Shown in pieces: positions 10,253-38,216 of a DNA stretch of 64,000 bases. The notes under the pieces are model-generated. The model saw only the letters and a program-made list of their open reading frames with translations. It searched no databases and was not told where the DNA came from. The position numbers and the translations under genes are program-made. Numbering within the stretch: position 1 is the first letter of the stretch; every line of letters starts with the position of its first letter. The DNA lies in the NCBI RefSeq assembly GCF_030505395.1, contig NZ_CP130044.1, forward strand, positions 853,001 to 917,000, read 5' to 3'. Source of the DNA: Asticcacaulis sp. ZE23SCel15 (GTDB lineage: Bacteria; Pseudomonadota; Alphaproteobacteria; Caulobacterales; Caulobacteraceae).

Positions 10253-11015
10253 TTAACGTCGATCTCGCCTCATTAAATCCCTCATAGCATGGGGGATCAG
10301 CACCCACGGTTCCAGGAAATAGCGGCTGAACAAACGCTTCGGCTCATGGAAAAACCTGACCAGCCACTCGATACCCATCTGCCCGGTCCAGCGCGGCGGG
10401 GTATACATCACGCCCGCCTCATAATCGAAAGCCGCCCCGATCGGCATGATTGCGCAATCCGGCAGTCGCTCCAGATTACTGAGAATCCACAATTCCTGAC
10501 GCGGCATCCCCATGCCGACAAGCAACACATCGGGCTTTCTGTCGGCCAAATCAGCCAAAAGTCGCTCATTTTCAGGGCCCGTCACATCAAAATAGCCGGT
10601 ATGCATATCCAGATGCACGTTAGGAAATCGCTTAAGGATCGCGGCTTTCGACAACGGATTATGTTCAGGCGCTCCACCGACATGGCAGACCCGCCAGCCT
10701 TCGCTTTGAGCTTGCGCCCAGAAGCTTTCACGAAAATCGAGATAGGTGCAGCGATGGGCCTGCGACACATCCCTGCCCAGCAACCGCCCCCACAGAATCA
10801 TCGGCGTCGAGTTCGATCTCGATCAGGTCGGCCTTGTCGTAAAAGGCCCGCATGTCTGAGCGGCGATGAAACAGGTAAAGACTGTGCAGATTGTGATTGG
10901 CGATCACTATCCGGCGTTTAGCGGTCACTGATTGCGCAATGGCCGACATCACCTCATCAGGCGTGACGGCATCGACTTCGGCTCCAAGCAAAGACAGGCG
11001 GCATGAGTGTGTCAT
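10253..11015 (-). pseudogene. WecG/TagA/CpsF-family glycosyltransferase with an internal frameshift
   Basis: Two overlapping frames together give one about 255-residue protein of this family. The N-terminal part (MTHSCRLSLLGAEVD ... ANHNLHSLYLF ... DKADLIEI) is in one frame and the C-terminal part (ILWGRLLGRDV ... VGMGMPRQELWI ... GIEWLVRFF) in another. The break is in GATCGAACTCGACGCC (reverse strand, at 10812-10813). Deleting one A gives LIEIDSTPMILWGRL, which restores the family pattern, so the extra base is well localised. The family transfers a ManNAcA-type sugar to a lipid-linked acceptor. Either a real inactivation or a sequencing error at a GANTC site. The ATG lies inside the hairpin at 10994-11024. 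Confidence 0.8.
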
Positions 11016-11024
11016 GCCGCCTGT
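10994..11024 (-). terminator. Strong hairpin downstream of the OmpA-like gene, overlapping the wecG start
   Basis: Perfect 13-bp inverted repeat (ACAGGCGGCATGA and its complement) with a 5-nt loop, followed on the minus strand by CTTTGCTT. It lies 24 bp beyond the OmpA-like stop, so it probably ends that transcript. It also buries the only ATG available to the WecG-like gene (11015-11013). Confidence 0.6.
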
Positions 11025-11047
11025 TATAAAGCTTAGTTATTGAGATT

Positions 11048-11713
11048 TTACTGCTCAACAGGTCGCAGGGTCACTTCGACGCGGCGGTTCTGGGCGCGCC
11101 CAGATTTGGTATCGTTTGAGGCGATCGGACGGGTTTCACCGGCACCGGCCACATAGATACGCTGATAGGCGACGCCGCGGCTCGACATATAGTTGGCCAC
11201 CGAATTGGCGCGGCGCTCCGACAGGGCCTGATTGTAATCATCAGCGCCGGTCGAATTGGCGTGACCGATCACATCGATATAGGTCGACGGATAATCCTTC
11301 AGGACACCCGAAACATCGTCCAGAACTTTGTAAAAGCGTGTATCAACCTGGTCGCCATTGACAGGGAAGGTCACGTCGGACGGCATATTCAGGGTGATCA
11401 CATCGCCATTACGGTCGACCGTCACGCCGGTATTGGCCAGCTTTTTACGCAGTTCAGCCTGCTGCTTATCCATGTAGTTGCCAACAGCCGCGCCACCGAG
11501 CGCACCAATACCGGCGCCGATGATCGCGTTTTTGCGGCCCTGCTCACCCTTATTGGTGTTGGTGGCATAGCCCGCAGCCGCGCCGACCGCCGCGCCGATG
11601 ATGGCATTGGTTTTGGTGTTATCACGCACCACCTGACCCGTATTGGGGTCAGTCGTCGTACAACCGGCCAACAGTATGCCGGTGGCCGCAAAGCCTAACA
11701 GAACTTTTTTCAT
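11048..11713 (-). CDS. OmpA-family outer-membrane lipoprotein with glycine-zipper segment
   Basis: 221 residues. A lipoprotein signal ends in the lipobox LLAGC with Cys18. Residues about 38-80 contain Gly/Ala-rich repeats (AIIGAAVGAAAGYAT and AIIGAGIGALGGAAVG) of the glycine-zipper type. Residues about 105-217 form an OmpA C-terminal peptidoglycan-binding domain with IGHANSTGADDYN, LSERRANSVANY, GAGETRPIASN and the closing QNRRVEV. It should tether the outer membrane to peptidoglycan. Monocistronic, with a terminator-like hairpin just downstream. Confidence 0.92.
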   Translation of the reverse strand: MKKVLLGFAATGILLAGCTTTDPNTGQVVRDNTKTNAIIGAAVGAAAGYATNTNKGEQGRKNAIIGAGIGALGGAAVGNYMDKQQAELRKKLANTGVTVDRNGDVITLNMPSDVTFPVNGDQVDTRFYKVLDDVSGVLKDYPSTYIDVIGHANSTGADDYNQALSERRANSVANYMSSRGVAYQRIYVAGAGETRPIASNDTKSGRAQNRRVEVTLRPVEQ

Positions 11714-11886
11714 GTTTAGATATCTCCCTTAAGCTCAAACCTCCGCCATTCATGGGTTGAAGCGGATATGAGCTGAAACTATTCCAGTTTTGCTGAACCT
11801 AGAATGAACGTCGCAAACAACCAATGCCTATGAACGACCCAAAAATAAGGGGATCATAAGCCCGCCATTAAAAGGCGATGAGGTTA

Positions 11887-36603: not shown

Positions 36604-36608
36604 GAGTA

Positions 36609-37163
36609 TTACGCTCTCTTAAGGGCGAATTTGAGGGAATTGAGTTTGGTTTTGAGGGACGCATCAAACAGACGCGACCCGACGCGGACCTTAAGCCCGC
36701 CTAAGATGGCCGGATCGACCAGGGTAGTAATATCGGCCTCACGGCCCAGCGCCTTGGCCAGTTCCGCTTTGAGGTTTTTGAGTTGACCATCGTCAAGCGC
36801 CACCGCCGACGTCACGGTCGCGGTCACAATGCCTTTGTGGGCCGCATAAAGCGAATTGAAGCCCGCAATCGTCGCCGCCAGTTGATCCAAACGGCCTTTT
36901 TGGCCCATCAGGTTCAAAGCTTTTGTGGTCAGGGCGTTCAGCTTGGCTTTTTTTGCGACTGCCAAAAGACCTTTAAGTTTCAGGTCGCTGGCGAAGGCTT
37001 GTGACCCCAGCACGCGGCGCAGATCAGCGCTTTCCGTGATCAGGGCCTTAAGCGTGGCGAAGTCTTTGTAGACCGCTTCAAGGGCGCCGCCATCGCGCGC
37101 CAGCTCGAAGATCGCTTTGGCGTAACGGTTGCCGACTTCGTTCTCTCTGAAAATATCGCTCAC
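36609..37163 (-). CDS. atpH: ATP synthase F1 delta subunit
   Basis: 184 residues from a GTG start. The N-terminal helical domain contains [13 protein letters not shown] and the C-terminal motif is [21 protein letters not shown]. It joins F1 to the peripheral stalk. First gene of the F1 operon; the F0 genes are not in this window, as is usual in alphaproteobacteria. Confidence 0.96.
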
Positions 37164-37465
37164 AGCTCATCCAAAAGATTTAATTATAAAGCACACGGAC
37201 ACCGCTACACAGATGGCGTTCTCATGGCGTGGATCGCGGCCTATTAGCATGCGACTTTGCGCATCGCAACCAAGCAAAACCGCATTGCCTGAAAAAATCT
37301 CGACACAATTCCCAAACAAAACCACTATGGGTGCATTGCACTACAGTATAATTGCCCTATTTAAGAATCTTATGTGCGGCGGGTGGCTGTATGACAGCGT
37401 TTACCGCAACTGGCACAGTTCTTTATTCATGGCATCCGATGCGATGCAAGGGGAGATAAATTCTA
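37164..37465. other. 302-bp intergenic region between atpH and terC
   Basis: Divergent control region. It holds the atp -10 candidate at 37183-37188 and, just before terC, an AGGGGAG ribosome site. TGGCAC at about 37411 is followed by a poor TTGCA half, so a sigma-54 promoter is not claimed. No gene seen. Confidence 0.5.
37183..37188 (-). promoter_or_regulatory. Candidate -10 box of the atpHAGDC promoter
   Basis: A perfect TATAAT on the minus strand 20 bp upstream of the atpH GTG. The -35 at the 17-bp position is TGTGTA, a poor match. The resulting leader would be very short. Confidence 0.4.
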
Positions 37466-38216
37466 ATGGACCAGATTCTGGCCCTGTTTGCTGATCCCGC
37501 CGTTTGGGCGGCGCTCGTTACACTTATCGTGATGGAAGTCGTCCTTGGGATCGACAATCTCATCTTCATTTCCATCCTGACCAACAAACTGCCCGAAGCC
37601 CAGCGCGCCCGCGCCCGCGCTATCGGTATTGGCGGCGCCTTGGTTATGCGCATCCTGCTGCTGTTCACCCTGTCGTGGATCGTTGCGCTGAAAGAGCCGG
37701 TAATCAGTCTGATGGATAAGGGCTTTTCCTGGCGCGATATCATCCTGATCGTGGGCGGCCTGTTCCTGGTCTATAAGGCCACCAAGGAAATCAACCACGC
37801 CACCGAAGCCCATGCGCCAGGCGATGCCTCGGAAACAAAAGACACGCCTAAGCCGGTGACGAGCAATATCGCCGCCGCCATCGCCCAGATCTTACTGCTC
37901 GATCTGGTGTTTTCGATCGAACTCGATCCTGACCGCCGTCGGTATGACCGATCACCTGCCCATCATGGTCATAGCCGTGATGTTCGCAGTGTTTGTAATG
38001 TTCGTGGCCTCTGGTCCTATCGCCAACTTCATAGCCAAGCATCCGTCGATTGTTATGCTGGCGCTGGGCTTCCTGCTGATGATCGGTATGGTGCTGATTG
38101 CCGAAGGTTTCGGGGCCCACATCGAAAAAGGCTATATCTATGCCGCCATGGGGTTCTCGGCCTTTGTCGAGTTCCTGCAAATGTTCCGGCGCAAGAAATC
38201 CGGCACGGCGCATTAA
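37466..38216 (+). pseudogene. TerC-family integral membrane protein with a frameshift
   Basis: First part: DQILALFADPAVWAALVTLI, EVVLGIDNLIFISILTNKLP, membrane helices and the TerC aspartate motif GIDNL, up to LLDLVFSIE. The protein resumes in a second frame as [20 protein letters not shown] and [20 protein letters not shown]. Removing one A from GATCGAACTCGATCC (37920-37921) gives [18 protein letters not shown], the exact TerC consensus, and a 249-residue protein of normal length. Proteins of this family are linked to metal export (for example manganese). Probably a functional gene misread at a GANTC site, or a true recent frameshift. Confidence 0.85.

What the first reader, a model, noticed from the sequence alone, without database searches (positions are those of the whole stretch)
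10812..37921. Three frameshifts, all explained by GACTC read as GAACTC at GANTC (CcrM) sites
The WecG-like gene (10812-10813), the glycoside hydrolase (32020-32021) and terC (37920-37921) are each broken by one extra base. In all three the local sequence is CGAACTCGA or its complement, and deleting one A restores both the frame and the expected protein: IDSTPMILW, AQDVRDSIGINTH and [12 protein letters not shown]. The restored site is GACTC/GAGTC, the GANTC target of the cell-cycle methylase CcrM known in Caulobacterales. Other GANTC sites in the window look intact (for example near 17628, 20660, 58450 and 59462), so the effect depends on context. The simplest reading is a 6mA-linked long-read basecalling error; a biological hotspot is the exciting alternative.
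Basis: partly seen in the sequence, partly recalled or inferred. Interest (0 to 1): 0.85.

Follow-up and report, generated by a model that had tools for sequence, protein, structure and literature searches.

The report
Nanopore misreads at methylated GANTC sites
Three genes that look broken in this lake bacterium's genome are almost certainly intact in the living cell: the sequencing machine misread chemically tagged DNA letters, and the same fault probably left several hundred further wrong letters in the published sequence.

Summary
In detail: at 10812, 32020 and 37920 the window has one base more than each relative compared (4-5 per site), and the relatives have GANTC there in 13 of 14 comparisons.

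The genome has exactly the length published for Asticcacaulis sp. ZE23SCel15: native R10.4.1 nanopore reads, 34x, 'Without any further correction'. Against A. endophyticus, 11 of 12 frame-breaking indels inside genes lie within 3 bases of GANTC, 1.4% of gene bases. Commoner is G read as A beside the methylated A: 127 of 788 sites, 10 of 685 in reverse. These changes are 68% non-synonymous (random 77%, other transitions 12%), so selection never saw them. A second nanopore-only Asticcacaulis genome (MM231) shows the same bias. One PF01555 methylase was found, CcrM-like. GANTC-linked nanopore assembly errors are in print for agrobacteria (PMC12710330). A biological hotspot is very unlikely. No reads were examined.

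The parts
10807..10815 (-). GANTC site with one extra base in the WecG/TagA-family glycosyltransferase gene (minus strand, about 10253-11010)
   Evidence: relatives G002, G004, G009, G013, G021 one base shorter, with GAGTC or GAATC; codon phase favours an insertion (+54); intact relative protein hits PF03808 (3.7e-41).
32015..32023 (-). GANTC site with one extra base near the N-terminus of a glycosidase-like gene (minus strand, about 30864-32120)
   Evidence: relatives G002, G004, G013 one base shorter with GAGTC or GACTC; G009 one shorter net, no GANTC. One search lists it. One search scored it as a frame change but of the other sign (upstream part is short), so it rests on the relatives. Function weak: no Pfam or NCBIfam hit at 1e-6, only PslG at E=0.001.
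37918..37926 (+). GANTC site with one extra base in the TerC-family membrane protein gene (plus strand, from 37466)
   Evidence: relatives G002, G004, G005, G009, G013 one base shorter, with GACTC or GATTC; codon phase favours an insertion (+46). PF03741 (3.6e-49) in the intact relative.
9451..12811 (.). Five suspected G-to-A (C-to-T) miscalls at GANTC, sites starting 9451, 11103, 11253, 12167, 12807
   Evidence: relative G002 has GANTC, the window has GANTT. Any single site could be a true difference (10 of 685 in the reverse direction).
18206..36641 (.). Five suspected G-to-A miscalls at GANTC, sites starting 18206, 24408, 33026, 36014, 36637
   Evidence: same criteria.
55029..62039 (.). Five suspected G-to-A miscalls at GANTC, sites starting 55029, 55426, 58012, 60829, 62035
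   Evidence: same criteria.

Best explanation
The three frameshifts are consensus errors of a nanopore-only assembly. CcrM methylates the adenine of GANTC on both strands (established knowledge, recalled). The 6mA changes the pore current, and the guppy 6.4.6 super-accurate model often reads the G before it as A; less often, in this genome mostly at GACTC/GAGTC, a base is added or lost. At 34x and without polishing, a share of these sites ends up wrong in the consensus: about 15% with G-to-A and 1-2% with an indel. The genes concerned are most likely intact in the cell. Shown here: the motif link, its context (GGANTC nearly free of it, pyrimidine at N preferred), the absence of selection, the second assembly, and the CcrM-like gene. 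From the paper: chemistry, basecaller, no correction. Inferred: that these sites are methylated in this strain, that the window is that paper's genome, and the current-level cause.
For: Genome length identical to ZE23SCel15, native R10.4.1 reads, 'Without any further correction'. 11 of 12 genic frameshifts within 3 bases of GANTC, 1.4% of gene bases; the 5 reciprocal events there are the same sites, so A. endophyticus shows none of its own in that count. G>A at GANTC 127 of 788 versus 10 of 685 reverse; against G013 27 of 201 versus 3 of 181; G002/G013 control 6 of 202 and 7 of 201. 5-mer screen: the strongest asymmetries are all GANTC-related. Non-synonymous 80 of 117 coding, versus 1065 of 1390 possible and 1490 of 12347 for other G>A/C>T. 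Context: GGANTC 4 of 405, HGANTC 120 of 875; N=C/T 86 of 640, N=A/G 38 of 640. MM231: 33 of 255 versus 1 of 217; 7 of 8 indels are +1 at GANTC; GGANTC 1 of 136; non-synonymous 20 of 23. CcrM: PDB 6pbd E=6e-189, RAMA domain, top NCBIfam model CcrM at 4.9e-188. In print: A/G and C/T ambiguity with minimal shared motif RA/TY (PMC11610573, passages); indels at or next to methylated bases (PMC12506013, passages); GANTC among motifs of assembly errors (PMC12710330, one section).
Against: The errors are not deterministic: the 12-mer ATCGACTCGATC is intact at 1096597, 1710819 and 3769454 but, going by the relatives, broken in terC. Four of the five CGAACTCGA frameshifts lie within 124 kb of a 3.77 Mb genome, unexplained. 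Error orientation runs in patches and leans to the sense strand of genes (70 sense, 34 antisense; context model 63.9 and 52.7, p=0.01), not repeated in MM231 (9 and 14). MM231 differs in detail: T before GANTC is rarely hit (1 of 63; here 25 of 246) and 4 of its 7 insertions are at GAATC. Raw indel rates by pattern do not single out GANTC. The CcrM hit is below its NCBIfam cut-off (624 of 830 bits); other methylase families were not searched. No reads were seen. Identity with CP130044 rests on exact length and kinship. PMC12392509 (passages) says methylated motifs mostly caused no errors in its data; PMC11610573 could not tie its pattern to a known methylation motif.
Confidence: 0.97

Rival explanations
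1. A biological mutation hotspot: methylated GANTC sites in this strain really mutate G to A and gain or lose a base, through misreplication or misrepair beside 6mA.
For: The motif link is strong and absent between G002 and G013; the genome has a CcrM-like gene; the changes lean to the sense strand of genes.
Against: Hardly any selection on 117 coding changes; extrapolated, some 700 substitutions and about 65 genic frameshifts would have to be fresh, in genes such as those like phoU, purU and mltA. The other genome with the same bias, MM231, is also nanopore-only, from another laboratory. The published method predicts the error.
Confidence: 0.01
2. Ordinary pseudogenes: three unrelated decayed genes whose frameshifts fall at GANTC by chance.
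For: Single-base frameshifts are a usual route of gene decay.
Against: 11 of 12 genic frameshifts lie in 1.4% of gene bases; the three genes align over nearly their full length to the four nearest relatives at 83-93% with no other uncompensated frame change inside against G002.
Confidence: 0.01
3. Generic long-read indel noise such as homopolymer error, not tied to methylation.
For: The assembly is nanopore-only; GAACTC contains AA, so an extra A is formally a run-length change; several genome-specific -1 indels in short runs occur outside the genic count.
Against: Only 1 of 12 genic frameshifts is away from GANTC, a +2 at a T run (832765); substitutions dominate and follow GANTC with a flank rule, which run-length error does not predict.
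Confidence: 0.01

Closest known systems
R/Y (A/G, C/T) ambiguity in nanopore Kit 14 bacterial assemblies, PMC11610573 (passages seen)
   Same: A/G and C/T confusion next to A; minimal shared motif RA/TY in a screen of 264 isolates of 32 species; native DNA; PCR-based sequencing is given as a remedy.
   Different: That work has reads and raw signal and could not name the methylation motif; here only the assembly was seen, the motif is GANTC, and one-base indels occur too.
GANTC among the motifs of SNP errors in nanopore Flye assemblies of agrobacteria, PMC12710330 (one section read, passages elsewhere)
   Same: Same motif, nanopore-only Flye assemblies, fewer errors with methylation-aware models.
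   Different: Different genus; the section read gives neither the base change nor a flank rule nor GANTC insertions (its tables were not seen).
Indel errors at or beside methylated bases in Neisseria R10 assemblies, PMC12506013 (passages seen)
   Same: 77 of 103 erroneous indels sit at a methylated position or one base away; a single indel with the PCR-based kit.
   Different: Attributed almost wholly to 5mC; its indels nearly all miss a base, whereas 8 of the 11 here add one.

Membership tests
Methylation-induced nanopore consensus error | Genome assembled from native-DNA nanopore reads without short-read correction | tested here: met
   whole text read; exact length match 3,774,217 bp and matching nearest relatives; the accession's sequence was not compared.
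Methylation-induced nanopore consensus error | Errors concentrated at one methyltransferase motif | tested here: met
   for substitutions and genic frameshifts. Against: (16 patterns, all indels) GANTC is only level with TANTA and close to other AT-rich patterns.
Methylation-induced nanopore consensus error | A cognate methyltransferase is encoded | tested here: met
   one PF01555 protein, CcrM-like, with RAMA domain; below the NCBIfam CcrM cut-off (624 of 830 bits). Methylation itself not tested.
Methylation-induced nanopore consensus error | Changes not filtered by selection | tested here: met
   68.4% non-synonymous, 76.6% possible (difference p=0.055), 12.1% for other G>A/C>T; 20 of 23 in MM231.
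Methylation-induced nanopore consensus error | Errors vanish with unmethylated (PCR) DNA or short reads | not testable with these tools
   No reads are held.
Methylation-induced nanopore consensus error | Read-level, strand-dependent ambiguity at the site | tested here: inconclusive
   Only indirect: orientation patches in this genome, partly tied to gene strand, not seen in MM231.
Real mutation hotspot at CcrM sites | Seen in genomes of the genus regardless of sequencing method | tested here: not met
   G002 and G013 against each other 6 of 202 and 7 of 201; seen again only in MM231, which is nanopore-only. The methods of G002, G013 and G016 and their CcrM genes were not looked up.

The most novel reading that the evidence does not exclude
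CcrM-methylated GANTC sites in some Asticcacaulis strains are true mutation hotspots (G to A beside 6mA, and single-base gains in the motif), so that both ZE23SCel15 and MM231 really carry hundreds of fresh, unselected changes.
Probability: 0.01. Interest if true: 0.85.

Novelty: not a real feature. Interest (0 to 1): 0.2.

Why it matters
As biology there is nothing to explain. It matters for users of this genome and others like it: by extrapolation (inference), some 700 wrong bases and about 65 false genic frameshifts may stand in a record announced as high-quality. They invent pseudogenes and amino-acid changes and make true GANTC sites look lost, just where CcrM-based cell-cycle regulation is read. 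It also suggests that an assembly compared with a close relative can betray its own methylation motif without any reads: 5-mer screens ranked GANTC-related words first in two genomes (p=4e-10, p=1e-4; neither corrected for the number of words).

Tried and rejected
Counting CGAACTCGA and CGACTCGA over whole genomes gave only a weak hint: 43 and 30 copies here, 29-37 and 39-54 in G002, G004, G009 and G013; the other eight genomes range more widely. Only paired comparison was decisive. Of 43 CGAACTCGA sites, 16 could be compared with fetched relative stretches (5 with an extra base here, 11 not); 27 were judged by codon phase alone. In one search the site 885015 was scored as a frame change of the wrong sign, so it rests on relatives, and 2436563 is doubtful.

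Indel rates by pattern did not single out GANTC: 15 of 796 here, level with TANTA and near TTNAA and CTNAG. I set that measure aside because it mixes in intergenic indels, and counted genic frameshifts. A looser score had also flagged 1017775, 1040031 and 1084208 as broken here and 833098, 862144, 1067158 and 1765027 as broken in G002, two places (1102028, 1102079) as coding in both, and against G013 885209, 896583 and 967301 here and 862143 and 906937 in G013. Against G002 none of these is inside a predicted gene by the rule; no such genic count was made against G013. The one exception within, 832765, is kept in the count.

The idea that strand imbalance of read coverage decides which of the two G's is misread had some support: 77 of 112 adjacent pairs within 10 kb alike, shuffle mean 60.2; 71 of 103 against 54.1 in a context model; no double AANTT site. 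But pairs on oppositely oriented genes are alike in 5 of 5 within 3 kb, 8 of 13 within 5 kb and 26 of 53 within 10 kb, and MM231 shows nothing (16 of 32). I do not claim it.

Limits: the codon-phase model was trained on 45 long open frames; gene calls are home-made. Blast blocks up to 400 bases or up to 82% identity were dropped, 5 of 795 GANTC sites with poor flanks were left out; one search uses genes of at least 240 nt lying wholly in one block and groups indels within 60 nt. The counts 796, 795 and 788 differ by how gapped and end sites are treated.
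Full report
What was checked. The three sites are as described. Each bears CGAACTCGA or its complement, the only three copies in the window. DNA searches in 40 relatives and alignments with 5, 5 and 4 of them (terC, wecG-like, glycosidase-like) show one base more in the window than in each relative aligned. The relatives have GACTC, GAGTC, GATTC or GAATC there in 13 of 14 cases; the exception is G009 at the glycosidase-like gene.

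Which genome. The window is 853001-917000 of a single contig of 3,774,217 bases. The announcement of Asticcacaulis sp. ZE23SCel15 (PMC10586169, whole text read) gives 3,774,217 bp, nearest genome UBA2476 at 93.55% and A. endophyticus at 92.57%, native barcoding V14, R10.4.1, guppy 6.4.6 super-accurate, 34x, Flye, 'Without any further correction'. Exact length and kinship make identity nearly certain, though the accession was not compared letter by letter.

Frameshifts follow GANTC. Own stretches of 724 kb were aligned to G002; 618 kb were covered. Counting uncompensated frame-changing indels at least 30 nt inside predicted genes (475 kb of gene bases), 12 break a gene here and 11 of them lie within 3 bases of a GANTC of G002, a class that covers 1.4% of gene bases (binomial 5e-20). 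Eight add one base in the motif or right after it; three lose one base in or beside it. Two of the 11 are in one gene. The twelfth (832765) is a +2 at a T run. The five reciprocal cases are the same sites seen from truncated frames, so A. endophyticus has none of its own in this count. Genes hit include relatives of phoU, purU, mltA and altronate/galactarate dehydratase. By G002's sequence 9 of the 11 are at GACTC/GAGTC; at one of the other two G013 has GACTC.

The larger error. At GANTC of G002 the own genome reads A for G (or T for C on the other side) as the only change in 127 of 788 sites, against 10 of 685 in reverse; G013 confirms it (27 of 201 against 3 of 181), and G002 against G013 is even (6 of 202, 7 of 201). 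Four control patterns (CANTG, AANTT, GTNAC, TANTA) are near even in both directions. A screen of all 5-mers for direction asymmetry puts GANTC-related words first (p=4e-10); the next words (p about 4e-4, many words tested) look like noise. The error spares GGANTC (4 of 405) against HGANTC (120 of 875) and prefers a pyrimidine at N (86 of 640 against 38 of 640). The window holds 15 such sites among 88 aligned GANTC, 58 being kept.

No selection. Of 142 G-to-A positions at GANTC (this count includes sites with a second change), 117 are coding and 80 of these change the protein, two to stops: 68.4%. All possible such changes give 76.6%; other G>A/C>T between the two genomes give 12.1% and all other differences 17.4% (Fisher 6e-45 against other G>A/C>T). 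True differences between species at this distance are filtered. The slight shortfall from 76.6% (p=0.055) fits the few true differences expected.

A second case. G022 has contigs of 3,458,694 and 570,284 bases, the lengths printed for Asticcacaulis sp. MM231 (PMC11556081, whole text read): ligation kit V14, R10.4.1, super-accurate model, Canu, Racon and Medaka. Against its near relative G016 (170 kb aligned) it shows G-to-A in 33 of 255 GANTC sites and 1 of 217 in reverse; 7 of its 8 indels are +1 at GANTC, 4 of them at GAATC; GGANTC is spared (1 of 136), but so is TGANTC (1 of 63), unlike here (25 of 246). 20 of 23 coding changes alter the protein, against 355 of 444 possible and 741 of 4401 for other transitions. 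In its own 5-mer screen GANTC-related words rank first at a modest p=1e-4.

The enzyme. The own genome has one PF01555 methylase, 373 aa from its ATG, matching CcrM of PDB entry 6pbd at 6e-189 and carrying the RAMA domain. The best NCBIfam model is Caulobacter CcrM, at 624 bits below its cut-off of 830. Other methylase families were not searched. GANTC is depleted in the window (79 against 239 expected), as recalled for CcrM-bearing bacteria.

Literature. PMC11610573 (passages) reports A/G and C/T ambiguity with minimal motif RA/TY and no fitting known methylation motif. PMC12506013 (passages) reports indel errors at or one base from methylated positions. PMC12710330 (one section) lists GANTC among the motifs of assembly errors, fewer with methylation-aware models. 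PMC12392509 (passages) reports two potential GANTC errors in Brucella and says most methylated motifs caused none. I saw no description of insertions in GANTC or of the GGANTC rule in what searches led me to; these cover open-licence PMC papers only, most hits were seen as listings, and supplements were not readable.

What remains open. Identical 12-mers are intact in some places and broken in another, as a consensus near a tie would give (inference). Four of five CGAACTCGA frameshifts lie in 124 kb, and the orientation of errors runs in patches with a lean to the sense strand, not repeated in MM231. I have no tested reason for either.

Verdict. Observation confirmed; the artefact reading is supported and extended; the hotspot reading is very unlikely. 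The three genes should be treated as probably intact and the record as in need of checking against reads.

Noticed in passing
window 9451, 11103, 11253, 12167, 12807, 18206, 24408, 33026, 36014, 36637, 55029, 55426, 58012, 60829, 62035: Fifteen GANTC sites of A. endophyticus read as AANTC or GANTT in the window; most are probably further miscalls of the same kind.
   Followed up: partly
G000:C1 785713, 816405, 987605, 1050622, 1150597, 1686165, 1686890, 1783335 (outside the window): Further apparent gene breaks at GANTC, in relatives of altronate/galactarate dehydratase, phoU, purU, mltA, a glycosyltransferase, a Sel1-repeat protein (two) and one protein for which no family search was run.
   Followed up: partly
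G022 (Asticcacaulis sp. MM231), L379-L388: A second public nanopore-only genome has a like GANTC error bias despite Medaka polishing.
   Followed up: yes
G000:C1 673001-1197000 and 1640001-1840000: Errors of like orientation cluster within a few kilobases (33 of 40 pairs under 1 kb alike) and lean to the sense strand of genes (70 to 34); unexplained, not seen in MM231.
   Followed up: partly
window 13931, 20622, 43531, 46190: Single-base losses against both G002 and G013, three of them in short runs of T, C or A; not among the genic breaks. Whether real or nanopore run-shortening is open.
   Followed up: no
L378 1384-2505: The CcrM-like gene lies between an RNase HII-like frame and a MutY-like frame (named by eye from the translations; no family search).
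   Followed up: no
PMC10586169: The genome announcement gives two GC contents, 56.81% in the abstract and 56.18% in the text.
   Followed up: no
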